Assembly (NCBI GenBank): GCA_036023115.1
Contig: JAYKKT010000073.1
Span: forward strand, 19,329,001 to 19,393,000
Origin: Brasenia schreberi
Lineage: Eukaryota > Streptophyta > Magnoliopsida > Nymphaeales > Cabombaceae
DNA: 64,000 nucleotides
Direction: 5' to 3'
The position numbers and the translations under genes are program-made. The notes below the pieces were generated by a model. That model was given only the letters and a program-made list of their open reading frames with translations. It had not been told where the DNA came from and ran no database searches. Shown here piece after piece: positions 7,721-64,000 of the stretch (within the stretch, counting starts at the first letter, position 1; each line of letters begins with the position of its first letter).

Positions 7721-18344
<10,624 letters not shown>

Positions 18345-25886: not shown

Positions 25887-26065
25887 ATGCTTTTTTACTT
25901 ATGTAAGGTTGAAATTTCAAATTTTCATTTTTACTTGTGTAAGGTTGAAATTTCAAAATTTCAGCTGCAACCTTGATTTTCTATTAAATATGTGATGTGT
26001 TGTGGAACTCTTATAAGAAGGACCTACAGTTGTATTTTCCAAGATCTTTTTTCGTTGCATTGTGA

Positions 26066-26663
26066 CTTCTTTTAAGTTAATATTGGGTTACATCAAGGAT
26101 CAACTTTAAGTCCATGCTTATTTATAATGGTGATTGATGAGTTAACAAAACATTTTCAATATGGTATATGTTATTTATAGATGACATTGTGTTAGTGAAT
26201 GCATCTAAGAAAAATATTATAGAGTAGCAATTAGATGTGTCATGTTTTATGGTTTTGAGTATTGGGTAGTTAATCATGTTCAAAGATGTTTGTGACAAAA
26301 ATGAAGATGTTGAGATGGATGAGTGGTCATACAAGAAAAGACCGTATACATAATGAGGTTATTATAAATAAATTATGTATGGCACCAATAGAGGATAAAA
26401 TGAGAGAATATCGTTTAAGGTGGCTTGGAAATGTAGAAAAAAAATCAAAAGAAGAACCTCTAAGAAGGTATAAAATACTAGAATTTGAAAGTATTAATAG
26501 GGATAAAAGGACGACCACAAAAGTGTTGAAAAGAAACAATAAAAAATAATCTAGCTTATTGTGAGTTAACTCCTTACATGACACGTGATAGGGTTATGTG
26601 GAAATAAAGAATCCATGTAGCCGACCCCGTCTAGTATGGGAAAAGGCTTAATTATTTGTTTAT
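26066..26663 (+). mobile_element. RTE LINE, internally deleted, with target duplication
   Basis: It is bounded by perfect 14-bp repeats TCGTTGCATTGTGA (26052-26065 and 26664-26677). It holds part of the reverse-transcriptase palm (near 26170, where the catalytic FADDIV-type motif has mutated), a deletion, then the C-terminal region (26286-26549, MLRWMSGHTRKD) and the 3' end CTAGTATGGGAAAAGGCTTA. No functional enzyme is encoded. Confidence 0.9.
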
Positions 26664-34530: not shown

Positions 34531-34967
34531 TGTAATGAAGTCTATGCTTCAATATAGTTGCGAAAGATCAATGAGTGGACAATACCACAAAGTAGCAATC
34601 ACAAGCCCTTAGAAAAGGGAATAGCCGAGAGCAACAAGTGTATGCGAAAAGGAGAATAAACAAAGCACGAGCTTGAATAAATAATCGTTATTCATTAGCC
34701 ATCAAAGGCTTGAATTTACAAGAGATTACAAGCGTATTTATAGAAGAAAAAGGAATGAAAGAGAGTGAGAGAGTGAGGGAGTAAAGGGAGAAGAAAGAGG
34801 GAAGAGAGGGGGGCTGGTTGCAGCCAGCCCCCAACGGTTACAAAACTAGCCGTTGGGGACCAGGGCCCCCAACGGCTAGTGGCCCCCCTGGCCCTGTTCC
34901 GGATGGCCCAGTGGGCCCTAGCCTGGCCGGCCCGGGCCAGAGGGGCCCAAACCCATTTTTCCTAACA
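34531..34967 (-). repeat. 3' LTR of the copia element
   Basis: It starts TG and ends CA (TGTAATGAAG to TTTCCTAACA on the plus strand). The plus-strand right half is very GC-rich and can fold: GGGGGCTGG/CCAGCCCCC near 34810-34833 and CCCCAACGG/CCGTTGGGG near 34831-34859 are perfect inverted pairs. Confidence 0.95.
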
Positions 34968-34974
34968 CCCCCCC

Positions 34975-37726
34975 TCAAACTGACAGCTCCATGACTTGAA
35001 GTTTGCCAATTAAAGATTGAAACCGAGGGGCAGGTAAGGACTTGGTGAACACATCTGAAAGTTGATATTCTGATTTTACAAACTGTAGTGTCAAGTTGCC
35101 TTCTAAATGCTCTTCACGAACATAGTGACAATCCATCTCTATATGCTTGGTGCGCTCATGAAAGGTATGGTTGTTGGCTATATACATAGCGCTTTTGTTG
35201 TCGCAGAACATTATTGGAGAAGCTACCAGTTGTATGCTCAAGTCTTAGAGTAGTTGTCGCAACCAAGTTAGTTCTGTAGTAGTGTGGGCCATTGCACGAT
35301 ACTCTGCTTCTATGGACGAAAGAGACACCTTTTGTTGTTTCTTGCATCTCCATGAAATAAGTGAGTGACCAAGGAATATGCAATATCCAGTAGTAGAGTG
35401 CCTGTCATTCACATCACCACCCCAATCAGCATCAGTATATGCAAGCAACTGAAATAACAAGGAGGAAGATAGAAATACTCCCTTAGTTGAGGTTTGTCGA
35501 ATATAACGAACAATCCTCATAACAGCACTCATATGCACTGAGGTGGGTGCATGCTGAAACTGACTTACAGTATGAACAGCATGAGCAATATCAGGCCGTG
35601 TTATGGTGAGATATGTGAGTGCTCCAACCATCTGTCTATAAGGTGTGGGATCACTCAGAAGTTCACCATCAACTAGGCGCATCTTCTGGTTGATTACTTC
35701 TGGTGTCTCAATAACTTTATCATCTATAATACCTGATCTAAGAATAACATCATTAGTAAACTTAGTTTGTGATAAAGAAATACCATCGGCATAAGAAAGG
35801 ATTTCCAAGCCCCTAGAAAGTAAGTGAGAGGTCAAGATCTTTCATCTCAAAATCTTGGCTTCAAAGCCCATTTAGGCAATTAATCTTGTAGTTTCATCAC
35901 CCATTAATAATCATATCATCAACATAAAGAAGACAACATTACCATTTTCAATATTTTTCAGCAAAAAGAGCATAATCATGAGCACCGGGAAGAGAACCCC
36001 AACCGAATGTGATACATCTTGTGAAAACTAGAAAAACTAAGACTCGATAAGTGTTTATTTAAGACTATAAAGAGCCTTACGAAGATGACAAACCTTGTCA
36101 GTCGCATGCTGTATCCTGAGGAGGACGTATATAAACCTTTTTCTTCTAACCTCACCATTAAAGAAGACATTTTTAAGATCCATTTGTGTAAAGACCACGT
36201 TTAAGTGGCCGCAATGGCGCAATATTCGAACAGAAAGGTATGCATGCAATGTATAAAAGTTTCTTCATAATCAATTCCATATTCTTCATAATCAATTCCA
36301 TATTCTTGAGAATAACCCTTGGCAACCAATCTAGCTTTATAATGATCTAATGAGCCATCACCATTAGTCTTGATTTTATAAACCCACCTACAACCTATAG
36401 TCTTTTTGTTTGATGGTCTAGAGACTATATCCCAAGTTTGGGCTCTAAATAAAGCATCCAACTCTTCATTAATTGCATGAGTCCATTCTTGTGATAATTG
36501 AGCTTCTTTAAAGGTTCTAGGTTCCTTTATAACTGAAATATTTGTTACTAAAGCTCTATTGAAAAACTATCATATGAGACAAATCTTTCAGGAGGTCTAG
36601 AATCACGATTTGACCGTCTAGGAATAGGCATAGATCTCCTATTGTAATGTTGATCAAAGGGTGTAATAGAATGTCTGGTAATCATAGGTTCATCAAGCTC
36701 ATTTTCTTCATGAATTACCTCTTCACCTAAAATATCATTTAAGAAGGAGTAGGAGGAGTCATTAATAGAGCTATCATCATCCATGCTTTTAAAAACATAT
36801 TCATTTTCAAAAAATCTAACATCTCGAGATACATAAAGCTTATCATTTTTACAATCATAACACCTATATCCCTTTTTGGTTATTCCATATCCTAGAAAGA
36901 CACATTCTATGGCCCGAGATGATAATTTATCATCTTTGTCAGTATAAACAAAGCATTTACATCCAAAAACATGCAATCTAGAATAGTTAGGAGAAACTTT
37001 AAAAAGTTTTTCTATAGGAGACATATTTTGTAAAACCGAAGAGGGCATCCGATTAATTAAATAGACTGTAGTCATAATAGCTTCTACTCAAAAATTTTTG
37101 GGAACACTACTTGACAAAAGCAAAGTTCTTGTGGTTTCCAAGATATGTCTATGCTTTCGTTCGGAAACACCATTTTGTTGAGGAGTCTTAGAACAAGAAG
37201 TTTGATGTATAATCCCAAACTTATTGAGATGATTTTCAAAATCCTTTGATATAAACTCTCCTCCTGAATCCGATCTAAAAATTTTGATTTCTAAATCAAA
37301 TTGATTCTTTACAAGATTATGAAAAATAACAAAATTTTGAAAGACATCGGATTTTGCTTTTAAAAGATATACCCATGTATACCTAGTAAAGTCATCTACA
37401 AAAATAACATAATAGGAAATGCCTCCTTTGGACAAAACAGGTGCCGGACCCCATACATCCGAATGAATTATTTCGAAGGGTCTTGTTGTAACATGTGTTT
37501 TGTTTGGAAATGGGAGATGTTGCATTTTACCAAGAATACAATCTTTGCAAGAAAAAGATTTCTTAAATTTCATTCCAAGAGGACATTGATACAATTTTTG
37601 AGCATTAAGATGTCCAAGTCTCTTGTGCCATAAAAGAGCATCATTTGTCAAAACATTAACATATCCTATACTATGCAAATAATCCATAATGTAAAGTCCG
37701 CCCTCTCTATGGCCATGCCCAATCAC
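34975..37726 (-). pseudogene. Copia pol: integrase, reverse transcriptase, RNase H
   Basis: At 37726-37088 are the pre-integrase HLN motif region (LLWHKRLGHLNAQKL) and the integrase core with acidic residues in IIHSDVWGP, IFRSDSGGEF and NGVSERKHRH. The integrase C-terminal part is at 37075-36548. The reverse transcriptase starts in 36461-36201 (TIGCRWVYKIKTNGDGSL), has the catalytic LYVDDM near 35930-35908, and RNase H at 35835-34975 (YTDADWGGD, SLSSIEAEYRAMA, HIEMDCHYVRE). Stops and frameshifts between the segments prevent a single polyprotein. A 21-bp duplication gives EYGIDYEEYGIDYEE at about 36310-36265. Confidence 0.92.
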
Positions 37727-37916
37727 CTTCTTCGAGAGGCGGTCCTATACAATACATCCGGTGGATGAAAAGGTTATAACACAATTTTGATCCAAAATTT
37801 GGGATACGGAAAGTAAGTTTAAATTTAATTTTAGAACAACACTAATTTTGGAAACTTCAAAATTCTTGTTTTGCAGGTCACCAATTTTATCAACGTTTAA
37901 TTGTGTACCATCCGCC

Positions 37917-38101
37917 TATGTAAGGAATCACCCTTGCATGGCCGGTCCCAAGCCCGGAAAAAGGAGGAGGGTTGTGTTAGGCTTCCGACAGCCAGCGTAA
38001 AACTTTTTCAAACTTAACATGGATTCTAAAAAAAAATAAAGAATCCATGTAGCTGACTCCATCTAGTATGGGAAAAGGCTTAGTTGTAGTAGTAGTAGTA
38101 G
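37917..38101 (+). mobile_element. Internally deleted 185-bp RTE derivative inside the copia element
   Basis: A perfect 20-bp target duplication, TTAATTGTGTACCATCCGCC, flanks it (37897-37916 and 38102-38121). The left part is the RTE 5' leader (CCCTTGCATGGCCGGTCCCA; CTTCCGACAGCCAGCGTAAA). The right part is the RTE 3' end (CTAGTATGGGAAAAGGCTTA) plus a GTA-repeat tail. Everything between is deleted, so it must have moved with a helper RTE enzyme, like a SINE. Confidence 0.93.
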
Positions 38102-39128
38102 TTAATTGTGTACCATCCGCCGTATAAACACATGATAAGGGTTTTTGAACACATGATTTTAAGATATGTTCATTACAAGTCATATGAAATGAAGCACCCG
38201 AATCAAGAATCCAAGAGATCGTACCTTGAGTTTTTTTTGTTGAAGATGAGCAAGCCACACCAACCGTTGCTTTTTCCTTCATTTGGGCTTCAAGTTGCTT
38301 TAATTTTTGTTCAAGTGCAAGAAGGGAAGAAGACGAAGCATGTTCTTCTACTACGGCCACCTTCTTTTTCAATTTTGGGCAATTTGGCCTTATATGCCCG
38401 GCTTCTCTACAATGATGGCAAATGATGTCTTTTCTTCCTTCTTCACTTTTGAAATGAGGAGGTCGGTAAGCCTTCATATTTGCTCCGGGTTTTGATGCGG
38501 CTAAGGCGGTGTCTTTTTGAAGTCTTGCTTCATTCATTCTTGTTTCTGCCATTTGAAGATCGGTAAGAATCTCTTCTTTTGTAGGAAAAGGTTTTCTATG
38601 AATGAGTGATGATCTTACCCCTTCAAATTCTTCCCGGAGACTTCTTAGAAATTGATATACAAAGTTCTCATTGTCTTCACATTGTCTCTCACTAAGACAT
38701 TGTGTACATTTCTTTTTGTAACCATACAATTGATTCCAAACATTGGAAAATTCTCCAAAAAATTCGTTTACCCCTTTATCTCCTTGTTTAAGTGAGACCA
38801 ATTTGTCTCTTAATGCCATCCTATGCGCCAAATCGCTTTGAACATGAGATTTTTTTAAATATTCTCATGCTTCTTTAGCGTTAGTGAAATCGGCCAAAGT
38901 GTCCCTAGTGTGCTCGTTTACATTATTCATGAGCATCCATAGGATTGTTCTATGGCCTCCTTCATATTCTTCTTTTTGTTCGAGTGTAGCATTAATAGAG
39001 GGTTCTACCTTTGAACCACTTACATAGCCCCATAATTTTTTGAAATACAAATAGTTTTCCATAGATTGGGCCAATGTTTTATAGTTCGAAGGTGTTAGAC
39101 GAAAATTGAAACCCCCTTTATCATCCAT
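37977..39128 (-). pseudogene. Copia gag and protease
   Basis: Gag starts at 39128 (MDDKGGFNFRLTPSNYKTLA) with a UBN2-type region and is interrupted by a stop between 38865 and 38831. It then continues in the same order with a zinc knuckle CHHCREAGHIRPNC (about 38420-38380) and the protease active site WILDSGASFHMTC (about 38222-38185). The frame runs into the RTE derivative inserted at 37917-38101, which separates protease from integrase. Confidence 0.9.
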
Positions 39129-39274
39129 AGTTAAAGGAGAAAGAAACTAAAGAGGTAAACTTACAAAATATGATCGACACGCTTCTCGAGGTAATGAACA
39201 ATACAAAATACGATTGGCACGCTTCCTAAGGCAACGAGCAATACTCCCACGATCGAAAAATGGCTCTGATACCA

Positions 39275-39713
39275 TGTAATGAAGTCTATGCTTCAAATTA
39301 GTTGCGGAAGATCAACGAGTGGACAATACCACAAAATAGCAATCACAAGCCCTTAGAAAAGGGAATAACCGAGAGCAACAAGTGTATACGAAAAGGAGAA
39401 TAAACAAAGCACGAGCTTGAATAAATAATCGTTATTCATTAGCCATGAAAGTCTTGAATTTACAAGAGATTACAAGCGTATTTATAGAAGAAAAAGGAAT
39501 GAAAGAGAGTGAGAGAGAGTGAGGAAGTAAAGGGAGAAGAAAGAGGGAAGAGAGGGGGGCTGGCTGCAGCCAGCCCCCAACGGTTACAAAACTAGCCGTT
39601 GGGGACCAGGGCCCCCAACGGCTAGTGGCCCCCCTGGCCTTGGCCCGGATGGCCCAGTGGGCCAGGGCCTGGCCGGCCCGGGCCAGAGGGGCCCAAACCC
39701 ATTTTTCCTAACA
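39275..39713 (-). repeat. 5' LTR of the copia element
   Basis: It is the direct copy of 34531-34967, with small substitutions and a few single or dinucleotide indels (for example GAGAGTGAGAGAGAGTGAGG in place of GAGAGTGAGAGAGTGAGG). The hairpin-forming GC-rich part is conserved. Confidence 0.95.
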
Positions 39714-42538
39714 ACTACATGGGGCCGACTACATGGATTATTTGTTTCCACATAGCCCTATGTTGTGTGTTAACTCAATATAATCTAGATCATTCTTTAT
39801 TGTATCTTTCCAATACTTTTGTGGTTGTCCTCTTCCTCTTTTAATATTTTCACAATCTAGTTTTCATATCTTCTCATGGGAGCATCCTTTGGTCATCTTT
39901 CTACATGTCCAAACATCTTAAACGATTTTCCTTTATTTTATCCTCTATTGGTGTTATTCCCAATTTGTTTATAATAACCTCATTATGTATACGGTCTTTC
40001 CTTGTATGAACACTCATCCATCTCAATATCTTCATTTTTGCTACAGACATCATTTGTATATGTTTATCATTAACAGCCAAACACTCATAACCCTAAAACA
40101 TAGTAGGTCTAATTGTTGCTTTATAATATTTACCTTTCAACTTTAATGGTATCTTCTTTATCACATAGAATACGTGATGCCTCTCTCCATTTTAACCAAC
40201 CAACATTAATTCTATGCGTAATATCTCCATCAATTTTTTTCATCACTTTTAAAAATAGATCATAGGATTTAAAACTTTCCTTGTGAGAGATAACTTTCCT
40301 TGTGAGAGATGCAATGTGTGTCAATCTTAATTTCTATGTCGTGTGAAGTGTCTAAATGATCAAACTTACATTCCATATATTATGTCTTTATTCTACTGCG
40401 TCAGAAGCTTTTACTTTCTTTCTCCCCATAGTTCTAATTTCCTATTAACTTTTTCCTTATACTCATCTACTAACACAGTGCCATTTTCAAATAACATACA
40501 CGAAGATACTTCATCTTGAATATATTTTGTTTACTTATTAATGAGTAATATAAATAAATATGGACTTAAAGTTAGCTCATACACCAATTGCTTTTAAAAT
40601 TCAAAATTCTTTTAAAATTACCAAAAACGAAATATAGTATCATGCCACCAAGGGAGTATCATTTGAATGCACGATATGAAGTATATCAATAAACTACCAT
40701 ATCATATACGATTACCTATGTCACAAATAACGGTTAGTAGGATGTCAAGAAGCATTAGATGCAACCACTTTTAAAATTCAAATTTCTTTTAAAATTACCA
40801 AAAACCACATTTATGAGAGGTGGTTATATATAAGGGGTGGTTTGAAGCTATGTCACATGAGTGCGGACATGGGTGCGGGATATGGCAAATTTTAAAAATT
40901 TTGGGTAAAGGGACACAACTAAGATATATATAATAATATATATATATATATATATATAATATTCAAAGTAGAGCAAGTGAGACATTAACATATGTATATG
41001 ATAATAGTAAGTACACATCTGTATATTAAAGCAAAACACGTAGACAACTACTAATTTTATCTTAATACAATAATAAATCAAAAGAAAATCTTAATGTTTG
41101 ATAAATAAAATGAGCCTGTACATGATAAATTGATAAATCATACTATCGGATAAGTGAGTTCCATATTAAGAGTGCAAATCTTGGCTTCATCTAAATCATA
41201 TTCCTCCGGATTTGCATTTCAATATTTCGATGCTCCTTCATTGCAATATATTCAAATAAATAACAGTAAAAGATGAAACAAAATCACCATGATTAATATA
41301 AAAGAAAATAATTTTGAAAGCTGTAAAATACTTAGTTATCTGTACTCGACATTATATCGTAAAACCAATCTTAGATTTAAATGGACATAAACGAGGTCTT
41401 CAACATGACTACTTTAGAGATTATTCTTTTTGATATTGTGAATTTGAGAATATCTAATCCAATTCCTTTCATAACAAGATAAAGTTGGAGGTTGAGATAA
41501 TAATTTTGATGCTAACTTTTTAAGTAGAGACATCTCAAATCCATAACATGCTTACCAATTTAGTGGATCTTGATAATCTCTTGCCTCTAGTGCTTCTAGT
41601 GAATCAAGTATGTCTCAAGAAAACTTTCCACATTTAGAATTTACTTGCCTAAGTATGAGTCACGATAAATCCTTCCCAAACACATTTGCCTATTCTTTGT
41701 TATTTCTGGATCTTGATTAGGAGGAATGCGCCCATTGCTCTCATGCAACCATTTCTTCTTATAATATCTTGGATTTAAATAATGTACTAAACAATGCAAG
41801 GGAGTCTTGTTTTTGTCCCATTTTGAAACAAATATAGAATTAATATGATTATAAATCGATGACGTCTCATATTGTTGTTTTTTCCCATACTTCAAAATTA
41901 TTGACTCAACTTTTTCAATCATGATATCCCATAAATTTTATGGGCAATCGGTTAATCTTTATAAACTTCTCTCAACATCTCCCAAATAGGCTCTACGAAT
42001 TCAAGAAAATATGATACCTTCTCCCACCATAAATCATTAAGAATAATGGCCTTACTAACTGCCTGAGTCCTTTCTTTATCTTCAACCTTTTTATCATAGT
42101 ATAAATCCCAACTTAAATGAGTAACCATATTAACCAATGATGTCTTGATTGTCTTGAATCTTTTTACCATCACAATCAAAGAAGCAAAACATGTTTCTAT
42201 AACCTTCAACAACTTTAAATCATAATGTCTATCGAATATGACTGTAATTAAATGATAATTCATTATAAATTCTTTATCTTTATACACTCTGCTGCCATAT
42301 CTTCTTATATACGAGAAAGAGCCAAATTTAAACCGTGAGCTATATATAGTATCCAAAAAATGTGTAGTTAATAACATTCAAAACTTAATCCTTCACTTTT
42401 ATAATTAGATGTATTATTAATGATTATTTTTACAACAGTATCTGGTCCAATACTCTTAATAAATTCTAGTTTTTACAATAGTATATGATCCAACATTCTT
42501 AATAACTTATACGAAAAAATCTTTTAAGTAGCCTACAA

Positions 42539-44205
42539 CAGTGTTGTCTGACGCGTATCGTATCGTGTATCGCTGGGTTCCATGATACGGGTGTATCGTA
42601 TCGTATCGTATCACCTGTATCTTACTTTAATATTAAAAAATACAAAAATATTTAAAAAATCAAGAAAAATTAGTAAAAATCCCAAAAAAATCAAGGAAAA
42701 TCAGGAAAAATCAGACAATTGCTTTAAATTCATATAATGCAAAGTTTAGTACAGATTGAGCATTCAACATTGAACAATTGCATCCAAATTTACATATTTT
42801 GAATCAATAAAATGAAATACATTTACATTTTACAAATTGTAAACAAGATCACCTGAGTGAGTGATATTGTTACTTGATGATATCCCCTTTTTCTCTTACT
42901 GGAGACTAGCTTTTTAACTAATACATGAGCTCCATTTCTCACTTCACAGACTGAGTTAAGCCTCACACAAGTTGATCATGTTCAACTCATTGGAAGTCAT
43001 GTAAAGTGAACCCTAAAATAGTGAAGTTGTGAAATGCTCACTCAATGAACCGAGACAACCAAATTGTTCTTCATTGTTTGCGATTTCATGAAATTAAAAA
43101 TTGGTAGCAGAAATATACCTAAAAGTTGGCAACAGAAAGGAAAATGATTTTGTCACAATTTTTATTTATTCATAAATTATTCTTATTCAATAAATGAAAT
43201 TATAAAGGCAAATTTACATGTTACATACACAACTTGCAATCCCAAACAAGCATATCAGAGGATGCTTTGGAGAGAAGTGAAGAGAGGTCAGAAACCTGCA
43301 ATTGGTCGTATCGCCTGTATCACACGATACAGAGTGATAAGTTCTGTTTTACGATACTCTTAGGCTATGTCATACGGGTGCGGGTGCGGGTGCGGGATAC
43401 GGCAAATTTCAAAAATTTTGGGTGCGGCGACACGGCTAGTGTATATAATATTATATATTATATATAATATTCAACCTAAATAAATCAATCATAATACAAC
43501 TAGTATTTTCTAATTTTGGGTGCACATAGGTATCAATTAGCAAGTTCTCACATAATGATCTGAAACTTACAATCATTTTATGAGCTACAAAATATCGAAG
43601 TTATGGATTCAAAGAGTTTCGAGATCTTTAGTAGGATATAACATATACTAGTATTTGTGTTAGGATCCACTAGTGATGTCATACTCTTCTGTTCTATTGA
43701 TCAGGTAATGTTTTTGGTCTTTAAATGTGTTTGGTGACAAAGATTATTCTGTGCAAAGGCATACAGTATGGAGTCAAGAATCCAATCACATTAAGTAATA
43801 AGAAACCAATTGTTCGCACTCAAAATCATTGAAGCTAATATGATATACAACTACAAGTCTACAATAGCAAGTACACAACTTTATAAGTTTATATTAAAGC
43901 AAAACATATAAATGGTAAACAACTACTAATTTCATCATAATACACAAATCAATCTTCATTATCCGGACCCATTTAACCGTGAGTTACAAAAAAAAAAAAA
44001 TTGTTTTTGCAATTTTTTTTTGCCATGCTGCACCCGACACGGTGTCGGTGTCGGTGTCGCACCAGTGTCGAGGTCGACACTCGTCGACACTCCACCCCTT
44101 AGAAGTGTCTGTGTGACTTAGCTCTTAGGTGTATCGTATCGTGGTATCTCACCGTATCGTACGATACGGTGCGATACCTGCGATACCACGATACAGATAA
44201 CACTG
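42539..44205. mobile_element. hAT element B, inserted in the transposase gene of element A
   Basis: A perfect 8-bp duplication GCCTACAA (42531-42538 and 44206-44213) flanks inverted termini CAGTGTTGTCTG and, reading in from the right, CAGTGTTATCTG. CAGTG-type ends plus 8-bp duplications define hAT. Next to both ends lie dense TATCGTATCG/GATACGATAC words as subterminal repeats. It has no transposase of its own, so it is non-autonomous. Element C lies inside it; without that it is about 0.9 kb. Confidence 0.9.
43365..44121. mobile_element. hAT element C, inserted in element B; short relative of element A
   Basis: A perfect 8-bp duplication CTCTTAGG (43357-43364 and 44122-44129) flanks termini CTATGTCATAC and, reading in from the right, CTAAGTCACAC. 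The left subterminal region (GGGTGCGGGTGCGG, then GATACGGCAAATTTCAAAAA) is the same as the left end of element A. The right one (GGTGTCGGTGTCGG, TCGACACTCGTCGACAC) resembles A's right end. At 757 bp with no coding, it is a deletion-type non-autonomous member of the A family. Confidence 0.88.
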
Positions 44206-44214
44206 GCCTACAAT

Positions 44215-46480
44215 TTTAATTTTTCCATATGCATCGACAAACTTAAAAAATATAGGACTACTGATTGAATAAGCAATAAAATTAATGAGTGGACGCCTTT
44301 GAATATCACTTTATCCACTAGAAATAATACAAACACTATTAATTTCTCATAAAAACTTCTTATGTTCTAAAAGCCTTTCAATATTAGTTTTTTCTTCTTT
44401 AATAATCATGGTTCACAATTTTTAAGAACTTCGAGGAACATAACCATTCAAATTACAATTATCCAACAAAGTGACAAGATCTTTCCAATATTGATTTCTT
44501 GGTACGATAAAAGGAAGTGAACTTGAAAAGAAAAATCTTCGAACATTTGTATCCATCTCTTCCCTTCCAACTACATTAAATAATTTTTAAATTGCTCCTC
44601 TAAAATCTTTATTGAAGTCACTTTGCATTATCTTTCTTTTCTTTTTTTATCTTCTTTGTATCCACCAAATAATAGAATACTTACTCCTGTTTTGCTCCTT
44701 CCTTTCTTCTTTTCATAATCCTCTTGCTTTTTAATAATTATTTTCGAAAGCCTCATCTATATTTGGGTGTGATCTTATACCATGCTTTGATAATTTCAAA
44801 GATGAGCTTTCACTCTTGTATAAAACCTTGTGAAACTCATGTTACAAAATTTACACATAAAATGTGTATTACCTCCACCACTTTTTATGGTTCTCACTTT
44901 TGCACGTACATCCATAATGGTGCATCATCACGAGGTGTTTAAATTGAAAGAGTTGATGATCTTGAACTTGAAGGAATACTACTATGAGAACTCCCGATCT
45001 CAATTGATATTCCTTTTCCTTTCCTTTTGTCGGTCATATTTATGATCAACTCAAATAATAGTCTCATTTAAAAATATAAACAATATTAACAACATAATTT
45101 TAGGATCCTTATAGGATAACATGTACCTAATACATTAGATTATTCGGCAGAGTTTACAATCTTAATGGATTCATATGCATTTTATGATCCTTATAGGATA
45201 AACAGGCACCTGATAACATTAACCTCAAAGGGATTCTAAGTTGGCCAAACTTTCTTAAAGTGCATTAATGTAGAGAATATGATAGAACTTACAAGAAAAG
45301 GGAAGGAAAGTAAAGAAACATAAAGCGTCGAATGGGAATAAAAGTATTTTACTTACCTCTATCAGTTATGGATGTACATACAAAACTATCATGCATAGTA
45401 TAGTCTACTATACATATCAATCACTAAAAAACTTGATTTGCAAAACGAAAAGTTCAAACTCAAAGAAACCCAAAACCCCCAAAGCAAGAATACCTCTTTG
45501 CATATCAACAAAAGAAAGAAGTGCACGACTAATAAGTTGTTAATAGCATGTATGTACCATAGTGGTAAGAATCAAGATAATAGTATATAAATGGTATAAC
45601 ACTACATCATACAATACACAAGATACAAGTATAATAAAGAAACCATCTACGGTATCATGGGGATTGGGGGATCATACCGTGAGCAAAAAAAAATCCAGAA
45701 AAGGTGGTTATATCACCTTTTAGGGGCATCCCAGTCTGGCGTCGACAAGGCAACCCAATGAGTAACAATGCTGGGTCGTTGGCTGGCGTGGAAGGTGAAG
45801 AGGAACGAGGAACCAAAGTCTGAAGTCAAGAGTCTCAGGACAACTTTGGAATAAAGGCCCACACTTGACCTATAGGGGTTGGACGATTTTGGACTTCGAC
45901 ACGTTGATTGTATCAAAAAATTACTTTGACACGTTGACTTGTCGAAGTTTCATGACACCGTGTCAGTGTCATTGTTTCACGAGTGTCGTGCTGACACTTC
46001 ACCTCCTAGAGGTGTATGACACAGGTTTGAAGAATCGAAGATGCTTCTCCCTATTTGAAAACCTTGTAGCCGAATAACACTCATGCAAAAGGCACAAAAC
46101 CACGCAAAAGTTGCAGTGAAAACTTGAGGATTCTGGTGGTCTTTATAAGCCAAGGGCGATATGCACCTATATAATGTGATCAGACCGATACAATACCAGA
46201 CTGCGATACACCCCTTCTATAGTATGATACGGGACAATACGGATACTGTCATTGTGCACAACACATGACTGCACAAGCAATCACTATGCACCATGTACAT
46301 CACTGTGCGATCACTGTATACAGCATAGTGCAGTGCAGTCCCTGTGACTGCACTGCTTTTTATGCCGTTTTATGTGAATTTCTTTCTAATATATTAGAGG
46401 GTGTTGATACATCTAATGTATCATGTTGAATTTCACAGAAATACAATATGTATCTGCTAATAATGTCCAATATAGGCAAC
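44215..46480. other. 5' part of hAT element A and its right flank
   Basis: Apart from the BED-finger part noted above, 45050-45950 holds non-coding hAT sequence. From 46033 to 46480 the flank holds words like GATACGGGACAATACGG (46205-46240) that recall the ends of element B. It is possibly an older relic of that family. Confidence 0.4.
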
Positions 46481-46481
46481 A

Positions 46482-46805
46482 TGTTAAATGTAGTGCATTT
46501 GATAAGCTGCCCCTAGTGCCTCCAACGACTACTTGCTGGCCAACGGCTAGTTGCCTGGCCAGCACTTGCAACTGCCCCTTTTGCTGTCCCACTTCCTCTC
46601 TCCTTGATGTGTAAATCCCTCTATAAATACTGCACTCTTATATCAATAAAGTATGTTGTCTAGCACAACTTTTATTTATAGTTTGTCTCTCTTGATACTT
46701 GCATTCTTGACTGGAGACATCCATTGTTGGATGGTTTAATATCTTGGCACTTTGACGAATTTCAACTTAAGTGATTCAACCTTCGATTATCAACAAATAT
46801 TTATA
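46482..46805 (+). repeat. 5' LTR of the second copia element
   Basis: It starts TGTTAAATG and ends AATATTTATA, where the terminal CA has mutated to TA. It contains CCTCTATAAATACTGCACTC, a good TATA-box context, and AATAAAG as a possible polyadenylation signal. Confidence 0.85.
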
Positions 46806-49800
46806 TGGTATCATAGCCTCATTTTGAAGAATTTGAGTACATCAGGAAACATGTCAAGATTACAAATTTTGTGAAATCATTCGAAAGATAATTCTAAACT
46901 TTTGTTTTACATAAAATAGAAAGCAAAAATGAATCTTTTAGATGCATTCTTGACCTAAAATGCTATCAAAGTTTGACAAGATAAATAAAAAGTATTTTTT
47001 ATCTAAAAACTTTTGTGATTATATTGATCGTACGATCAATAACCGATTTTAGATATCGAAGGTTTGGATATGATGTTTTTAAGACACATGAAAAATATAA
47101 GCAAAATCTAAAAACTTGAGAAAAGATGAATACTAAAGTAACTTGGATTATTTATCAAAATATAGATGAAAAACTTAGAAATAGAATTAGTGTTTTCGAA
47201 AGTGCTTTCAAAACTTGGGAATATTTGAAAAAGATTCACTCTCAAGATGATTTTGTCTTTTAAATTGATTTAATGGAAATGATGATAATGCTTAAGGAAG
47301 GGAATTTAAGCATTAGAGACTATCACAATGAGTTTTCAAAATTATGGACTCAACTTAGAAGTTTTGATAAATTCGAAAAACTTCAAAAAAATGATGAATT
47401 TAAAGAGTTTTTGGATAATCAATATTTCTTTTTATTTATATGCAACTTAAGAGATGATTTTGAAAACATTAGATCAAACTTAATACATAGAAAACCTAAA
47501 CGAAAAGGAGACTCATTTTTAACCGATCTTATTATGGAGGAAATAAGATTAAAAACATCAATATTACAAAAGAAGTTGTTCTTGCCGCCTCCAAACGAGG
47601 AGTTAATATCAAGGTGTAAAGCCCCGCATCTGAAAAACTTCAAAGGACTAAGAGAAGGAACAAACAAGAAACCCACGGGACCGTGGCAAAACAATGACAT
47701 CATATATCACTATTGCAAGGAAAGTGGGCATATCAAAACCACTTGTCTTGGTTTTTAGTTTGGGTGCTTTTTTTAATATGACTCATTGTGATAAATCCTT
47801 AAATGAATCTCATGATATCTTTGGAAAGCACGTCGGTTGACACAAAACATTAAATTGAAAAAGTAGAAAATTTTGAAAACGGTAATTTTAAAATTTAAAA
47901 TGTAAGTTTTATACCTAAACTCAATTTAAACTTACTTTCAGTTGCTCAAATTTGTGATAATGATTGTATAGTTACTTTCTCATCCAAGCATTGTGTGGTG
48001 CATGATCAGATATCGAAGAAGGTAATTGGTTAAGATCATAGAGAAAATGGACTATACAAAATGGATTGTTTAGTTATGCCAAATTTTGAATCTTATAATG
48101 TAGCCCAAGATTCTACTCTTTGGCATAAACGACTTGTATATTTGGATATACATAAATTATGTAATTTTCTTTTTTAGAAAAAAATTAAGAAACAAAAGTT
48201 TGAATGTAAAGAATGTGTTCTTGAAAAAATGCATCATCTTCCTTTTGGAGAAAGAAATTATGTACCAAACAAAGCATTTGAATTAATACATTTTGATGTT
48301 TGGGGTTCTACCCTTGTTGTTTCTAAGGGAGGAGTTCAATATTATGTGATATTTGTAGATGATTTTACTCGTTTTACTTGGATATATCTTTTGAAGCACA
48401 AATCGGAAGTATTTGAAAAGTTTGTAACCTTTTGCAACCTTGTTAGAAATAAATTTGGCTCTACTATTAAGATTTTTAGATCTGATTCACGAGGAGAATA
48501 CATGTCAAATGAGTTTCAAAAATTTATTGAAACCAATGGAATTTTGGATAAAAAATCTTGCACTAAAACCCCTTAACAAAATGGCTTAGCTGAGAGAAAA
48601 CATAGGCATATTATAGAAACATGTACAACTATGTTGATTGCTAGTAATGTTCCTAAGTTTTTCTGGGCAACATATTATTAATAGAATGCCTTCAACCAAA
48701 CTTTAAAATATTTTGTCCATTTGAAAAACTATATAATCTTTCTACTTATTATGAAAAACTTAGAGTTTTTGGGTGCAAATGTTTTGTTTATACGAACAAA
48801 AATGATAAATTGTCTTCTAGGGTCATTGAATGTGTATTTCTTGGTTATGAAATAGACCAAAAAGGTTATTGATGTTTTGATCCTGTTAATGATAAATTGT
48901 TTGTTTCTAAGGATGTAAAATTCTTTGAAAATAATGCTTACTATAAGACTAAATCTTTCGAAAGTTCCGAATCATCTTTATCTCAAGATTTCTTTAATTT
49001 AGAAGAAGACGATGATTGCGACTTTGAAGCTCATCAAGATATTCCTCATGAGTCTAGTGATGTCTAAAATGAAATTGTTGATCCACAAGCCATCATTGAA
49101 CCCTTTCCATTACATTATACTAGATGACATAGAGAATCTAATAACACATGTTTAAAACCTAGAGTTTCAAAACCTCCTCAACATTTTGTTTCTTAAGAAT
49201 CTTTTAAAGTTTAAACCTCAACGAAAAAATTTGATTGCAACTTTTCATTAAGTAAAAGAACCCAAATTTTATCATGAAGGTAAAGGTATTCCAGAATGGG
49301 AAGATGCTATTAGGGATGAACTTAGAGCCTTAGATAAAGCTCAAACATGGACTGTAGTACCGATGCCTAAGGATAAGAAGGTTATTGGATGTTGATGGGT
49401 GTATAAAATTAAAACTCATAGCAGTGGTAATATTGAGAGATATAAGGCCAGATTGATCGCCAAGGGTTATACATAAAAATATGAAATTGATTATGATGAA
49501 ACTTTTGCTCCTGTTGCTAGAATTATTACTATTAGAACTCTAATAACTCTTAGTGCCATTAAAAATTAAGATATATATCAACTTGATTTTAAAAATGCTT
49601 TTTGAATGGATATTTAACTGAAGATGCTTATATGACTTTCCCTCTCGGTTTTAATGTTCTCTAGGATCATGTTCTTAAACTGCAAAAAGCATTGTATGGC
49701 TTGAAACAAGCCTCGAAGGCTTGGTTTGATCGATTTGAAAAATTCATGCATCTTCATAACTTTATATCTTGTTATACTGACATTGCTTTGTTTATACGAA

Positions 49801-50779
49801 AGACAGATGTATGTATTGTTATTTTGCTCTTATATGTGGATGATATGATCCACTGTGAGTGATGAAGCAGGGATTGAGGAGGTTAAACATAACCTTTATC
49901 AGGAGTTTGATATAAAGACTTAGGACTTCTTAACTATTTTTTGGGTATTGAAATTATTAGAAACAATTGTGGTTACTTTATGTTTTAAACTAAATTTGCA
50001 AATGATATAATTGAAAGATCCCGTATCACAGACAACAAAACAGTGGATACTCTTGAAGTTCTTGGTACTAAGTTAAGATGCACTGATGGAGAAAGATTAG
50101 ATGACCCCACCCTCTACGGACAACTCATAGGTGACCTTACCTATTTCACTATTATCCGTCTTGACATTCCTCGTGCAGTTCATACATCTAGTCAATTTCT
50201 CCAAGCACCTACCTCTGTTCATATAAGTGATGTTATGCGCATTATTCGATATGTAAAAAACTCTACAAACAAGGTTTTTTTAAACTTTTTCGTCTTTTGA
50301 TTTATCTATGTATACGAATGCTGACTGGGGTGGAGATGTCAACAATACATACTCTACGACTGATTTTTGTTTTTTTAGGTGAATCACTAATCTCCTGGAA
50401 GTGCAAGAAGCAACAAAAGGTGCCACTCTCTTTAATCAAAGTAGAATATCGATGAATGACTACTGCTGCTATAGGGATTTCTTGGATTACAACTGTTTTG
50501 AGCGATATGGATGTTACTTTTCAAAAACCTGTCACTATGTATTATGACAGCAAAAGCACTATGGACATTTCTTCCAACAACACTTTCCATGAACATACGA
50601 AGCATATTGAGATGAATTGTTATTTTGTTCATGAAGAATGCTTACAAAAGAAGATAACTTTGTGTTATGTCACATCAGAGATGCAACTAGCTGATTTCTT
50701 CACCAAATCTTTTTCGGCCACTCGCTTTCATTTCTTGTTGGATAAACTTTCGGTATATACACCGTAAGTTTGAGGGAGG

Positions 50780-50999
50780 TGTTAAATGTACCAACGGCTA
50801 GCGCTTGCAGTTGCCCCTTTTACTGTCCATCTTCCTCTCTCCTTGACGTATAAATCCCTCTATAAATACTATACTCTCATATCAATAAAGTATGCCATTC
50901 TTGACTTGAGACATCCATTATTGGATGGTTTGATGTCTTGGTACTTTGACGAATTGCAACTTGGGCGATTCAACCTTCGATTATCAATAAATATTTACA
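50780..50999 (+). repeat. 3' LTR of the second copia element, internally deleted
   Basis: It matches the 5' LTR at both ends (TGTTAAATGTA to AATATTTACA) but is about 100 bp shorter. It lacks one block near its start and another after AATAAAGTATG. The same TATA context CCTCTATAAATACTATACTC is kept. Confidence 0.85.
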
Positions 51000-55814: not shown

Positions 55815-57190
55815 ACAACAACAAAGTCTTTTTCCATATTAAATGGGGTCAACTATATAGATTCTTTATTTCTACTTAGCCCTATCATGTGCCATGTTGG
55901 CATGATAGTTAACTCAACATAAGCTACATCATTCTTTATGTTTCTTTTCAACATTTTTTTGGTCTTCCTCTTCTTGTTTTACCATTTTCACAATCTAGTT
56001 TTTCATACCTTCTTATTGGAGTTTTCTTTGGTCGTCTTTCTATATATCCAAACCATCTTGAACGATTTTTTTATTTTTCCTCATTTTATCCTCTATTGGT
56101 GCCACTCCTAATTTATTTCTAATAATCTTATGTATATGATATTTCCTTGTGTGACCACTCATCCATCTCAACATCTTTATTTTTGCCATAGATATCTTTT
56201 GTATATATTGATGATTAACTGCCCAACACTCAGAACCATAAAACATAGTAGGTCTAATTGTTTCTCTATAATATTTACCTTTCAACTTTAATGGTATCTT
56301 CTTGTCACATAAAATACAACGCGACCGCGTCTCTCCATTTCAGCTTTAATGGTATCTTCTTTAGGTATTTAAAACTTTCCTTGTGAGAGATACAATGTGT
56401 GCCAATCTTAATTTCTATGTCCTCTTATCAAACTTATATTTTATATATTAACACCCTATCGTAATCTTTTTCTAGATCAATAAATATCATGTGAAGTTTT
56501 TTTTTTGCTCTAAAATGTTTCATAAGACGTCTCAATAGGTGAATCGATTCAATGGTAGATATGCCTGACATTAATGCAAATTAGTTCCCTGTTGCACTTA
56601 ACCTATCTTTAATAATTTTTTAGCTCATTAACTTGATACCCCGATAATTCGCACAATATGGATGTATCTCTTGTTCTTGTATATAAGTATAAGTGTACTC
56701 GCTCTCCATTCCTGATGCATATTTTGGTTTCTCCATATTTCATTATAATAGTCTTGTGAGTCAAGTGATCCCCGTCTCGTAGAATTTTATATATTTCTAT
56801 AGAAATATTGTTTGGTCCAACAATTTATCAACCTTCATATATTTAAGAGCCTCTTTGACTTCATTATTTTGAATATGTCTATAGAAATTACGGTTTATAT
56901 ACTTTTATGATTTGGCTTACTCTCTTGAGATAATACTACCATCTTTATTTTCATTAAAAACTTATAAAAATAAAATTTTCATCTATTTTTGATATCATCA
57001 TTTGCCAGTAGAATCTTTTGATCCTCATCTTTGATGCATCTAACAAAACTAAGATCATTACTTTTTTTTTTATCTCTATCCTTAGCTATCCTAAAAATAT
57101 CTCTTTAACCTTTTCTTGAGTTAAGCTTTTATATAAATCCTCACACTTTTTTGGCTTTTGTTTCACTAATGGCCTTTTTCAAGATATTTC
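55815..57190 (-). mobile_element. RTE LINE, minus strand, 5'-truncated
   Basis: The 3' tail (complement of GTTGTTGT, then a mutated GGGAAAAAGAC) lies at 55815. C-terminal coding runs at 56285-56040 (ETIRPTMFYGSECWAVNHQY; MLRWMSGHTRKY). Reverse-transcriptase fragments continue to 56900, and the pre-RT region (ETKAKKCEDLYKSLTQEK; SFVRCIKDEDQKILLANDD) lies at about 57180-57000. It is therefore one of the longer RTE copies here, though full of stops. Confidence 0.85.
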
Positions 57191-57407
57191 CTGAGGCCGG
57201 AGCATGGTGCCTATAATTCAAACTTTAAACTTCAATGTAACATTCATATGGACATGCTATAATGCTCTTCAACACTATCAAATCCAAATGTGATCTTCTA
57301 AGTTCATCTATGTTTTCTTATGATATGACGATTCTCATAAACTATGTTATTTTCAACTTTTATCTTCGCTTATTTAATTTTATAATATTCTTTAGGAGTT
57401 GTTATTT

Positions 57408-58157
57408 AATAGAAAATTGGAACTATGGAGAGAAGCATTAGAAAGTAAAGGCTTTCGACTTAGTAGAATAAAGACAGAATATATGGAATGTAAGTTTGAT
57501 CGTTTGGTTACTTCAGAGGACATAAATTAAAATTGGCACACATTGTATCCTCCAAAAAGAAAGTTTAAATACCTAGGGTCAATTTTAAGAGTGAAGGAAG
57601 AATTGATGGAGATGTTACACATAAAATTAATGCTGGTTGGTTAAAATGGAGAAGATCATCAAGTATTCTTTGTGATAAGAAGATACCATTAAAGTTAAAA
57701 GGTAAATATTATAGAGCAACAATTAAACCTGTCATGTTTTATGGTTCTGAGTGTTGGACAGTCAATCATCAACATGTACAAAAGATGTCTGTGACATAAA
57801 TGAAGATGTTGAGATGAATGAGTGGTCATATAAGAAAAGACCGTATACATAATGAGGTTATTATAAATAAATTATGTGTGGCACCAATAGAGGATAAAAT
57901 GAGAGAATATCGTTTAAGGTGGTTTGAACATATAGAAAGAAGATCAAAAGAACCCGTAAGATGGTATGAAAAATTAGATTTTGAAAGTATTAAAAGAGGT
58001 AGAGGACAACCACAAAAGTGTTGAAAATAAACAATAAAGAATGATCCAGCTTATTGTGAGTTAACTGCTAATATGGCACATGATAGGGCTTTGTGGAAAC
58101 AAAAAATCCATGTAGCCGACCCCATAGTATGGGAAAAGGCTTAGTTGTTGTTGCTGC
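57408..58157 (+). mobile_element. RTE LINE, plus strand, with target duplication
   Basis: The flanks TTTAGGAGTTGTTATTT (57391-57407) and TTTAGGAGCTGTTATTT (58158-58174) form a 17-bp target duplication with one mismatch. It starts in the reverse-transcriptase thumb region (GAAAATTGGAACTATGGAGA) and ends AGTATGGGAAAAGGCTTAG followed by a TTG tail. It is 750 bp long and non-coding in practice. It stands head-to-head with the minus-strand RTE at 55815-57190. Confidence 0.9.
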
Positions 58158-58815: not shown

Positions 58816-60414
58816 ATGTTGTAATAATCGTATTGGTGCCCATATCACATAGGGCACCCATACACGATAATCATGCCGTATCGCACGATACTCAATATTT
58901 AATCCTATATAATAAGAAAAAATTGTAAAAAAACATAAAAAATCCAAAATATAGAAATTTTGAAATTAATCAACAAAAGGTAACACATTTTTAGAAAATA
59001 CAATCAATATTAAACATAATCCAATTAATAACAATTAAGCATTGGCATGACAATGACGTTTCACAATCAATAATAACTAGAAGAGTAAGAAAGTTGAAGT
59101 TGTTAAACTACAAACTAAAACTAACATGTAGTTTATTAATTTACGTATTTTCATTCTTGAACTCAAATCCTCAAGCATTATGTGTAACACATGGGGTCCA
59201 CACTAAGGATGGATGGCTTGATCCAAACATCTTACTAGTTGCTTTAAAATTTATGTATTATCAATAATGAAGTGAACAATATTTTCAACACCAATACCCT
59301 CAATAGCAACTTAAAAAATAGAGAGCAAGTTGTTTGCAATTTTATCAATATGAGAGAGGTCATATGATTTCAAAAACCATATCCCCTTTGGAAAGTAGAC
59401 CAAGAAGTTCACCAATGATCTATTCTCGTTATCTGTCCAACCATCAACCATGATAGAACAATCAATAACCTTTCACGACTCCTTGAATTCAGAAGGACAA
59501 TATCAACTCATTTTTGTAATAATTTATTTCTCAAAGGATGATATGTAGGGACCTTATAACCTGAACCTACACTAGCAATAACATCAACCATACATTGAAA
59601 GAAAAATGAATTTATAACATTAAAAGAAAGGCAATTTTCATAAGAAAACTTTGCATACTTCAGATCTACTTTCTTAGTTATCTCTTTAAAACCATAGTTG
59701 ATCTAATGTTTGGTTGAACTTATGAAATCATACATGGAAAAATGAATTTATTCTAGTGCCTCTACCTCCTCTATCACCCATCACAGTCATCATATGAACA
59801 CTGTCTCTTGCAATGGAAGAAAAACCAACCTCACTGCTTATGCCACCAAAACCTACACTCTTTTCCTTATCTCGTCTTCTCTTTGTCTCTTGAACTATCA
59901 ACTTCTCAACTATACCATAAATTTATTTACCATATATATCTTGAGAAGCATCTTTAAATTATTGAGACATATTACAACTATCTATTTTTGCTCTTTTTGT
60001 CATAATTTTTTATTTTCTTTGTAGCTTTCAAAACTTGCCAAATTTAATACTTGGTTCAGATATATACCATGAATTTCAAAACTTATTTGACAAGCACTTC
60101 AAATATTTTTTTGATTCTTGCAAGATTATGTTTATACTTTCATGCTTAACCTCTTTAGAGAACATGCACCTATTTACAAGCTTATTGTCTTTATACGCTC
60201 GATATAATACTTTCACGCTAGATCTGACCGATCGAATGTCATTAAAGTGAGCAGAGATAAACCATAACAAGAAAAAGGCTTTAAAAAGTGAGGAATCTTA
60301 GAATCTATAAAAACCCTCATTTTTTCAATTGAAAAATTAGGTGATAAAGGAAGAATGGAGTATGCTACGGTTTTGATAAAAACCTATGGATTTTCATGGT
60401 TTAAGAGAAAAACA
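58816..60414 (-). mobile_element. hAT relic D with DUF659 transposase N-terminal half
   Basis: The left end CAATGTTGTAATAATCGTAT followed by ATCGCACGATAC-type words resembles the ends of element B. On the minus strand, 59700-59180 reads through stops as ARFFYENCLSFNVINS, GSGYKVPTYHPLRNKLLQK, VIDCSIMVDGWTDNENRSLV, NFLVYFPKGIWFLKS and VENIVHFIIDNT. This is the DUF659 portion of a plant hAT transposase. The C-terminal domain is absent. No target duplication was found, so the limits are approximate. Confidence 0.7.
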
Positions 60415-61804: not shown

Positions 61805-64000
61805 AGTTACAGGTGGTAATGAACAGAAACTAGAGCCATTCCAAATCACGAATATTTGTTTGGAAGGAAGAAATTACAGAGAATGGGCAAGATCAATTGA
61901 GCTAGTTCTACGTGCACATGGAAAACTATCAGTTATTAAACCAAGTCAGCCACAACCAGATGAAGACAATGCAGATTTTGAGCGATGGTCCAAAGATGAT
62001 GCATTTGTTAGCTCATGGCTTCTCCAATCAATGAAAGATTTTGAGCGATGGTCCAAAGATGATGCATTTGTTAGCTCATGGCTTCTCCAATCAATGAAAG
62101 ATTTTGAGCGATGGTCCAAAGATGATGCATTTGTTAGCTCATGGCTTCTCCAATCAATGAATCAGATTATTAGTAAAACTTTTATGTATTTAGAATTAGC
62201 TGCAGATAAGATTTGGACAACAATTGAAGAAGCATTTTCAAGACAAAGCAATATTGCTAAAGAATATGAGATTATTGAGAAAATAAGGAGATGTCGTCAA
62301 GGAACTAGATCAGTTAGTGAGTATTACGGAGAATTACGTGAATTATGGAATAAACAGAGATACTTTGTAGAAAATAAATGCAGTCATTGTGTAAAAGAAA
62401 GAACACCAGAAAGTGACATTCGAAAAGTATTTGATTTACTTTGGGGAATCTCACTTGAATATGAATCAATCAAGTTCAATATTCTCAAGAAAGAAGATAT
62501 GCCATCACTGGGAACAATATATTCACTCTTATTGAGAGAGTAAGATCGAAAAAACTTAGAAAAAGGAGAACATACTCAAACTGAAAAATCTGTATTTGCT
62601 GGTAGAGGTAATATGAATTATCAGAGAGGTAGAGATTCAGTCAGAGGCCGTGGAAGTGGAAGATTTCAGAATTATGAAGATAAAAATAAATTGCAATGCA
62701 TTCATTGTGGAAAAAGAAGACACACAAGATAACATTGTTGGGAAATTATTGGATGACCTGCAGAGTATAAGAATTATGGCAGTCATGTGGCTGCTACATC
62801 TGAGAAAGAAAAAGCAGAACCAAATCCTATAGATGAAATGGCTGAATTGAAAAGCAACTTGCAGAAATAGAAAGTCGACTTCGTGACTAACCTTCGACCT
62901 CATCACCAAATATTGAAATGAGCTAGCCTACTTCCTAAAGTATCAGTGGTAACTTCTTCAGAAAAAATTCTATATATTAAAATTATTGGGTGATTGATTT
63001 AGGGGCTATAGATCATATGGTAGGAGATAAATCTAACTTCAGAGAATATAAAGTTACTCATATACCTTAATATGTAAAGATGGCAAATGATTCCTTAATT
63101 CCATTGGAAGGAACAAGAGAAATTGAAGGAATTTTTTAAAAACTTAATTAAGTGATATACATTCCCAAATTTCCAGTAAATTTACTTTCTGTAAGCTCAT
63201 TGATTAGATATATGAATTGCTCAATCACGTTTACTCCATCCGGTTGTTTTTTTTAGAATCTGAGGACGGGAAGAACCTTTGGACGTGGTGAATTGAAGAA
63301 TGAGTTGTATATACTTCCTGGTCCACATCCTACAATACAGAGAAAAGCATTGGCAGTTATCCCTACAGAAGAAGAAATAAGACTTTGGCATAGTAGATGA
63401 GGACATTTACGTATTTCTAAAATTTGTGAGTTTGTTCCTTTTGTAATCCCAAAAGATTTAGTTATTCAATGTGATGTGTGTCAGAGGGCTAAACATCATA
63501 GAGCCTCGTTTCCTAGTAGTGATTCTAAGTCGTTAGTTCCATTTTAGTTAATACATTCTGATGTATGGGGTCAATGTTTGATACCTTCCTTGGAAAATTT
63601 TAAATACTTTTTTACTTTCATTGATGACTATTCAAGGCTTACATTTGTTTATCTTATGAAATCAAAATCAGAAATATCATCTATTTTCCCTATGGTTCAC
63701 TGTCTAATTAAGACTCAGTTTGGGTACACCATTAAAACCCTTAGATCTGATAATGGTAGTGAATTTTGCAATTCTACTTTGGAATCATACCTTCAAAGTC
63801 ATGGCATTCTTCATCAAACTTCTTGTGTGTACACCCCACAACAAAATAGAGTTGTTGAAAGGAAAGACAGACACATTTTGGAAATCGCACGAACCCTCTT
63901 ACTTGAACATAGTGTTCCAAAATATTTTTGGCTAGAAACGATACTTACAGTTGTATATCTCATGAACAGACTTCCTTATGTGGTCCTTGGTGTAAAATCT
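61805..64000 (+). mobile_element. Third Ty1/copia retrotransposon, 5' part, runs off the window
   Basis: Gag (to 62543) starts with a CLEGRNYREWARSIELVLRA region and carries three tandem 63-bp units (61974-62162), giving DFERWSKDDAFVSSWLLQSM three times. A zinc knuckle CIHCGKRRHTR-x-HC lies near 62700-62740, a protease-like YWVIDLGAIDHMV near 62983-63020, a pre-integrase LWHSR-x-GHLRISKI near 63390, and the integrase core to the window end (LIHSDVWGQ, LRSDNGSEF, RVVERKDRHI). Stops occur (62541, before IHSDVWG and elsewhere) and NGVVER is changed to NRVVER. The D of the protease motif is kept, but DSGA reads DLGA. It is a different copia lineage from the two upstream. Confidence 0.92.

What the first reader, a model, noticed from the sequence alone, without database searches (positions are those of the whole stretch)
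40840..46032. Three hAT elements nested inside one another, each with a perfect 8-bp target duplication
Element A (40848-46024, duplication GTTTGAAG) carries a BED/DUF659 transposase. Element B (42539-44205, GCCTACAA) is inserted in that transposase gene. Element C (43365-44121, CTCTTAGG) is inserted in B. C has the same ends as A, so the A family was still active after B had broken this A copy. The order of events is therefore readable: A inserted, B broke A, then a short A relative entered B using transposase made elsewhere.
Basis: partly seen in the sequence, partly recalled or inferred. Interest (0 to 1): 0.85.

Follow-up and report, generated by a model that had tools for sequence, protein, structure and literature searches.

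The report
Three nested plant hAT transposons
A dead jumping gene in a flowering plant's DNA was hit by a second jumping gene, which itself carries a small relative of the first; it is a clear but ordinary example of transposons piling up inside one another.

Summary
A (40848-46024), B (42539-44205) and C (43365-44121) are each bounded by a perfect 8-bp duplication.

A carries a decayed DUF659/hAT transposase on the minus strand. B splits its DUF659 domain: profile positions 2-72 lie on one side, 77-138 on the other. Of 113 homologous proteins, 97 match on both sides of B. With one duplication copy kept, B's flanks align without a gap to all six relatives tried. So A's relatives do not normally contain B.

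C's two ends resemble A's, not B's. B has its own terminal repeats and GTATCG repeats, which continue on both sides of C.

Nesting shows that B entered A and C entered B. It does not show that C arrived after B broke A, because B could already have carried C. Nor does it show that A was here when B landed. A also has at least nine stops and several frame changes, so B need not have killed it.

Host-genome copy tests could not be run (search did not complete). Nested Ds elements are known in maize. Ordinary; low interest.

The parts
40848..46024 (-). Element A: decayed autonomous-type hAT (DUF659) transposon, 3502 bp of its own DNA; transposase gene on the minus strand
   Evidence: Ends shared with C; transposase homology; length
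40840..40847 (.). Left target duplication of A, GTTTGAAG
46025..46032 (.). Right target duplication of A, GTTTGAAG
44215..44932 (-). 5' part of A transposase, right of B: N-terminal region and first half of DUF659 (profile 2-72), with stops and frame changes
41339..42530 (-). 3' part of A transposase, left of B: second half of DUF659 (profile 77-138), following region and hAT dimerisation region (by homology), with stops and frame changes
42416..42501 (-). 43-bp tandem duplication (copies 77% alike) inside the DUF659 region, a further lesion of A's gene
42539..44205 (.). Element B: hAT-like element without detected coding capacity, 902 bp of its own DNA, terminal repeat CAGTGTT(G/A)TCTG matching 11 of 12, GTATCG subterminal repeats at both ends
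   Evidence: no Pfam match above cut-off in the four B translations scanned
42531..42538 (.). Left target duplication of B, GCCTACAA
44206..44213 (.). Right target duplication of B, GCCTACAA
43365..44121 (+). Element C: 757-bp member of A's end-family, same orientation as A, inserted in B's right subterminal repeats
43357..43364 (.). Left target duplication of C, CTCTTAGG
44122..44129 (.). Right target duplication of C, CTCTTAGG
43863..43954 (+). Internal stretch of C that matches A's left subterminal DNA 41003-41079 (92 columns, 72.8%)
   Evidence: realigned with score 96 against a maximum of 80 in 200 shuffles
43475..43862 (.). 388 bp of C without a BLASTN match to A or elsewhere in the window at E 1e-6 and 60 columns (filler)

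Best explanation
Three independent cut-and-paste insertions of hAT-type DNA transposons into one another in a flowering-plant genome. A is a once autonomous DUF659/hAT element. B, an apparently non-autonomous element of a different hAT-like family, entered A's transposase gene in the DUF659 domain. C, a short element with A-family ends and no detected transposase, entered B's right subterminal repeats. Each insertion made an 8-bp staggered-cut duplication. B and C would have been moved by transposases made from other copies: for C one recognising A-family ends, for B one recognising CAGTGTT ends with GTATCG repeats. Shown: the anatomy, the separateness of the three, and B's precise insertion into a gene that is continuous in relatives. 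Inferred: transposases acting in trans, and the simplest in-place order A, B, C.
For: Exact duplications at all three pairs of ends. DUF659 profile matched at 2-72 right of B and 77-138 left of B. 97 of 113 homologues match on both sides of B; in 88 of those 97 the right-hand match ends at 44215, two bases from B's duplication, and in 73 of 97 the two matches are only 9-12 residues apart in the relative. The one-copy empty-site reading was tried on six of the 113 relatives: it aligns ungapped over 72 residues to each of P0001-P0005 and over 71 to P0009, with no extra or missing residue at the join. C's left and right ends match A's (scores 108 and 40 against shuffle maxima 29 and 22) and not B's. 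16 of the window's 28 GTATCG sites lie in B's 902 bp, 6 in its first 100 bp and 10 on the two sides of C; none in C or in A's own DNA.
Against: No second copy of B was available, so B's outer limits and C's absence from other B copies rest on this one locus. A's and C's terminal repeats are weak alone (8 and 9 of 12). The CpG-decay test of relative age went the expected way (A lower than B and C) but was not significant (permutation fractions 0.22 for B over A, 0.44 for C over B, 0.20 for C over A). By the criteria, 16 of 113 homologues did not match on both sides of B (7 upstream only, 6 downstream only, 3 neither); three of the six downstream-only ones do match upstream, but their match runs on 40-61 bases past B's right edge into its duplication and B. 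Of the 97, 12 have gaps of 44-92 residues and 7 have gaps under 8 or overlaps.
Confidence: 0.93

Rival explanations
1. B already carried C when it jumped into A: C entered B elsewhere, and B+C then moved as a unit. The three elements are the same but the last two events are reversed.
For: B's terminal repeats and duplication are intact around C, so B+C (1667 bp) has the anatomy of a mobile unit. Nesting alone cannot exclude it.
Against: C splits B's right GTATCG subterminal repeats, which would be expected to lower B's mobility, by analogy with Ac, whose transposase binds repeats in the terminal 200 bp (passage of PMC3260210). Inference only.
Confidence: 0.2
2. A brought B (and perhaps C) with it: B entered A at another locus and the composite then moved here by transposase acting in trans.
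For: A's ends and duplication are intact around B and C; nothing at this locus excludes it.
Against: It needs an extra step and mobilisation of a broken element; no copy elsewhere could be looked for.
Confidence: 0.08
3. A, B and C are parts of one composite element that normally looks like this.
For: C's ends match A's, as parts of one system might.
Against: Relatives of A's transposase match on both sides of B's site in 97 of 113, 73 of them with only 9-12 residues between the matches; B has its own ends and duplication; C has its own duplication inside B.
Confidence: 0.02
4. Chance: random 8-mers and weak inverted ends read as insertions.
For: Simulated windows give about 8 pairs at least as good as C's and 49 at least as good as A's by duplication and terminal repeat alone.
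Against: A and C set each other's boundaries by homology; B's pair is expected 0.03 times per window; homologous proteins confirm B's insertion point.
Confidence: 0.01

Closest known systems
Maize Ac/Ds family, nested Ds (Ds-l4 inside Ds-l3-15; chromosome-breaking double Ds), PMC3260210
   Same: hAT elements with 8-bp duplications; a non-autonomous element nested in another element of the same system; nesting of this kind is described there as rarer than for LTR retrotransposons (passages seen).
   Different: Here the related pair A and C is separated by an unrelated element B, giving three layers; A is a DUF659-type element with different ends.
Plant DUF659/Dimer_Tnp_hAT transposases (closest named: Nymphaea colorata LOC126410608, LOC126410604, LOC116257376, LOC116252633; Victoria cruziana)
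   Same: These align to A's strung-together transposase fragments at 37-47% identity over 91-100% of the query.
   Different: A's copy has stops, frame changes, a 43-bp tandem duplication and B inside it.
MITE-like short derivatives of the hAT element BuT2 in Drosophila willistoni (PMC3942097, passages seen)
   Same: Short elements of 532-927 bp sharing the outermost parts of a larger hAT element, many with 8-bp duplications; C is 757 bp.
   Different: C keeps about 110 bp of A-like left end plus a further A-like stretch and 388 bp of unrelated filler; copy number unknown.

Membership tests
hAT superfamily (element A) | 8-bp target duplication | tested here: met
   GTTTGAAG on both sides
hAT superfamily (element A) | hAT-type transposase with C-terminal dimerisation region | tested here: met
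   Homology over the gene to 113 proteins, 78 of which are listed with both PF04937 and PF05699 (four relatives rescanned). In A itself Pfam reaches its cut-off only for DUF659 (36.9 bits against 34.7), and PF05699 was not matched
hAT superfamily (element A) | N-terminal BED zinc finger | tested here: inconclusive
   No Pfam BED match in A's fragments or in P0003, P0004, P0005, P0008; a CxxC motif in A, source names of some relatives, and PF02892 listed for 1 of 113
hAT superfamily (elements A and C) | Typical terminal repeat start [T/C]A[A/G]NG (PMC6027215, section 12 read); typical rather than defining | tested here: not met
   All four ends have T at the second position: CTATG, CTGTG, CTATG, CTAAG; the other specified positions fit
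hAT superfamily (element B) | 8-bp target duplication and terminal repeat of pattern [T/C]AGNGNNG | tested here: met
   GCCTACAA twice; left end CAGTGTTG fits 8 of 8, right end CAGTGTTA all but the last position
hAT superfamily (element B) | Mobilised by a hAT transposase | not testable with these tools
   No coding capacity was detected in the four B translations scanned; no related autonomous copy was available
A's own element family (element C) | Shares both ends with A and makes an 8-bp duplication | tested here: met
   Left 77.5% over 120 columns; right score 54 against shuffle maximum 32; CTCTTAGG twice
MITE (element C) | High copy number of near-identical short copies | not tested
   Host genome search did not complete

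The most novel reading that the evidence does not exclude
A and C form a nested pair of same-family, same-orientation ends about 5 kb apart, comparable to the maize 'double Ds'. While an A-family transposase was present, mismatched pairs of ends (A-left with C-right, C-left with A-right) could have been used together, making this a chromosome-breaking or segment-moving configuration. It survived only because the family fell silent. The family would also be a DUF659 hAT lineage with unusual CT-starting termini.
Probability: 0.12. Interest if true: 0.4.

Novelty: new member of a known kind. Interest (0 to 1): 0.22.

Why it matters
It is a clean worked example in which a protein-level empty-site test, rather than visual reading, supports a nested insertion. 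It also shows what nesting cannot tell: the order in which nested units arrived at a locus. For the host plant it names two hAT-type end-families (CTATGTCA with GTGTCG repeats; CAGTGTT with GTATCG repeats) that can be used to mask repeats and date activity. It does not change any general understanding.

Tried and rejected
Relative ages by CpG decay: observed CpG over TpG/CpA ratio 0.52 (A), 0.74 (B), 0.78 (C), in the expected direction but not significant by block permutation; the CpG-rich subterminal repeats may drive it. Rejected as evidence of order.

Five single ORFs of A against Pfam gave almost nothing (one DUF659 match at E 0.1), because the gene is broken into short frames; longer fragments read through with X gave the DUF659 result.

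Host identification: a host-gene exon gave only two unnamed homologues at 32-34% identity. For the LINE reverse-transcriptase fragment the best of 908 matches (120 listed) was an unnamed JGI protein at 72%; listed proteins with an organism name reached at most 61%. The host is therefore only 'a flowering plant', perhaps near the water lilies, because the closest named transposases are from Nymphaea and Victoria. This is an inference.

A possible further B-like relic in A's right flank (46150-46270) was compared with B's ends: scores 20 and 20 against shuffle maxima of 22 and 23; the reverse complement scored 26 and 21, for which no shuffles were run. Not convincing.

Literature: seven searches. 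One search (terminal sequence as text) listed only irrelevant papers, none opened. No report of this locus or of a three-layer hAT nest was seen in these listings, but they are capped lists and most subscription papers are not held. Papers opened: PMC3942097 (passages), PMC6027215 (passages and section 12), PMC3260210 (passages).

The Ac/Buster target-site classes (recalled) were considered for sorting A, B and C into hAT families and dropped: three sites are too few, and the consensus was not in the passages read.

Full report
What is there. A is 40848-46024, B is 42539-44205 inside A, C is 43365-44121 inside B. Without their inserts and one duplication copy each, A has 3502 bp, B 902 bp and C 757 bp of their own.

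Chance. A scan for exact 8-bp duplications 400-6000 bp apart with inverted 12-bp ends was run on the window and on 60 first-order Markov simulations; duplications of fewer than three letter types were left out. Matches of at least 11 of 12, as for B, are expected 0.03 times per simulated window; the window has two, B and a pair lying in a retrotransposon's two long terminal repeats. At least 9 of 12, as for C, is expected about 8 times (23 seen), and at least 8 of 12, as for A, about 49 times (84 seen). So the perfect duplications do not by themselves prove A and C. What does is that A and C are homologous and therefore mark each other's ends. Their left ends match from the element edge over 120 columns at 77.5%. 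Their right ends score 54 against a maximum of 32 in 500 shuffles. A further internal stretch of 92 columns matches at 72.8% (score 96 against a maximum of 80 in 200 shuffles). The duplications then fall exactly at ends fixed by this homology.

A's gene. Read on the minus strand, A holds a broken hAT transposase. Pfam finds DUF659 in two pieces: profile positions 2-72 in the fragment right of B (28.5 bits, below the 34.7 cut-off) and 77-138 in the fragment left of B (36.9 bits, above it). A search with the fragments strung together gave 113 homologues, 78 of them listed with both PF04937 and PF05699. The best match is an unnamed JGI metagenome protein (P0001); the closest named ones are from water lilies (Nymphaea colorata, Victoria cruziana) at 37-47% identity. 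Against P0001 the aligned pieces contain nine in-frame stops and the pieces left of B lie in three successive frame changes; the reading at B's junction adds a stop and one more frame change. There is also a 43-bp tandem duplication inside the DUF659 region.

B interrupts A. All 113 homologues were aligned to the region. By the criteria used, 97 match on both sides of B, 7 only upstream, 6 only downstream and 3 on neither side; three of the six downstream-only ones do match upstream, but the match runs 40-61 bases past B's right edge and so failed the criterion. Of the 97, 88 have an upstream match that ends at 44215, next to the duplication at 44206-44213. In 73 of 97 the two matches are 9-12 residues apart in the relative but about 1.7 kb apart in the window; 12 show gaps of 44-92 residues, and 7 show gaps under 8 or overlaps, as can be expected of local alignments to a frameshifted gene. 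When about 120-150 bases on each side of B are joined with a single duplication copy, the reading aligns without any gap across the join to each of the six relatives tried: P0001 (unnamed), P0002-P0005 (Nymphaea colorata), 72 residues each, and P0009 (Quillaja saponaria), 71 residues.

B itself. B's ends match 11 of 12 (CAGTGTTGTCTG and CAGTGTTATCTG) and fit the plant hAT terminal pattern [T/C]AGNGNNG in 8 of 8 and 7 of 8 positions (pattern from section 12 of PMC6027215). The hexamer GTATCG occurs 28 times in the window: 16 times in B's own 902 bp (6 in the first 100 bp, 10 in the stretches on either side of C), never in C and never in A's own DNA. So B's right subterminal repeat array continues on both sides of C, which supports that C interrupts B. 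No Pfam match above cut-off was found in the four translations of B and the one of C that were scanned, so B is non-autonomous as far as tested.

C. C's ends match A's (scores 108 and 40 against shuffle maxima 29 and 22) and not B's, and C lies in A's orientation. It has no detected transposase and 388 bp of filler without a BLASTN match in A. The best reading is a short, non-autonomous member of A's family moved by a transposase from another copy. All four A and C ends start with CT, which departs from the usual [T/C]A start at the second position; I treat this as a family peculiarity because the transposase and the 8-bp duplications are hAT-like.

What the order is, and is not. Nesting shows that B entered A-element DNA and that C entered B-element DNA. 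It does not prove the sequence of these two events at this locus: C may have entered B elsewhere and arrived with it, or A may have arrived with B inside. C's position within B's subterminal repeats makes a prior ride somewhat less likely, by analogy with Ac, whose transposase binds repeats in the terminal 200 bp (passage of PMC3260210), but this is inference. Relative CpG decay was tried as an independent clock and was not significant. Nor is it shown that B inactivated A, given A's many other lesions.

What is known. Nested hAT elements are described: in maize a Ds-l4 lies inside a Ds-l3, and nested Ds elements can break chromosomes, which the authors give as a probable reason why nested Ds are rarer than nested LTR elements (passages of PMC3260210). 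Short hAT derivatives sharing a larger element's ends are described too (passages of PMC3942097). This locus is a new member of a known kind.

Limits. The organism was not identified beyond a flowering plant, possibly near the water lilies.

Noticed in passing
59164-59675 (-): A second, separate fragment matching DUF659 hAT transposases: 32-42% identity to 11 of the 12 relatives tried.
   Followed up: no
34531-39713: Copia-type retrotransposon (minus strand) with long terminal repeats 95.7% alike over 439 columns; its right edge abuts a LINE fragment (39714-40573), so it may be nested in a LINE.
   Followed up: partly
46557-50997 (+): Apparently older copia-type element with end repeats about 72% alike over 247 columns (46557-46803 and 50796-50997), just right of A.
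   Followed up: no
11355-12917, 26064-26656, 39714-40573, 55815-56936, 57407-58156: Several related LINE reverse-transcriptase fragments, up to 90.9% alike; best homologue of one of them an unnamed JGI protein at 72%.
   Followed up: partly
61973-62168: Near-perfect tandem repeats of about 63 bp inside an open gag-like frame, giving the same 21 residues three times.
   Followed up: no
46150-46270: GATAC-rich stretch just outside A's right end that weakly resembles B's subterminal repeats; not clearly above shuffles.
   Followed up: partly
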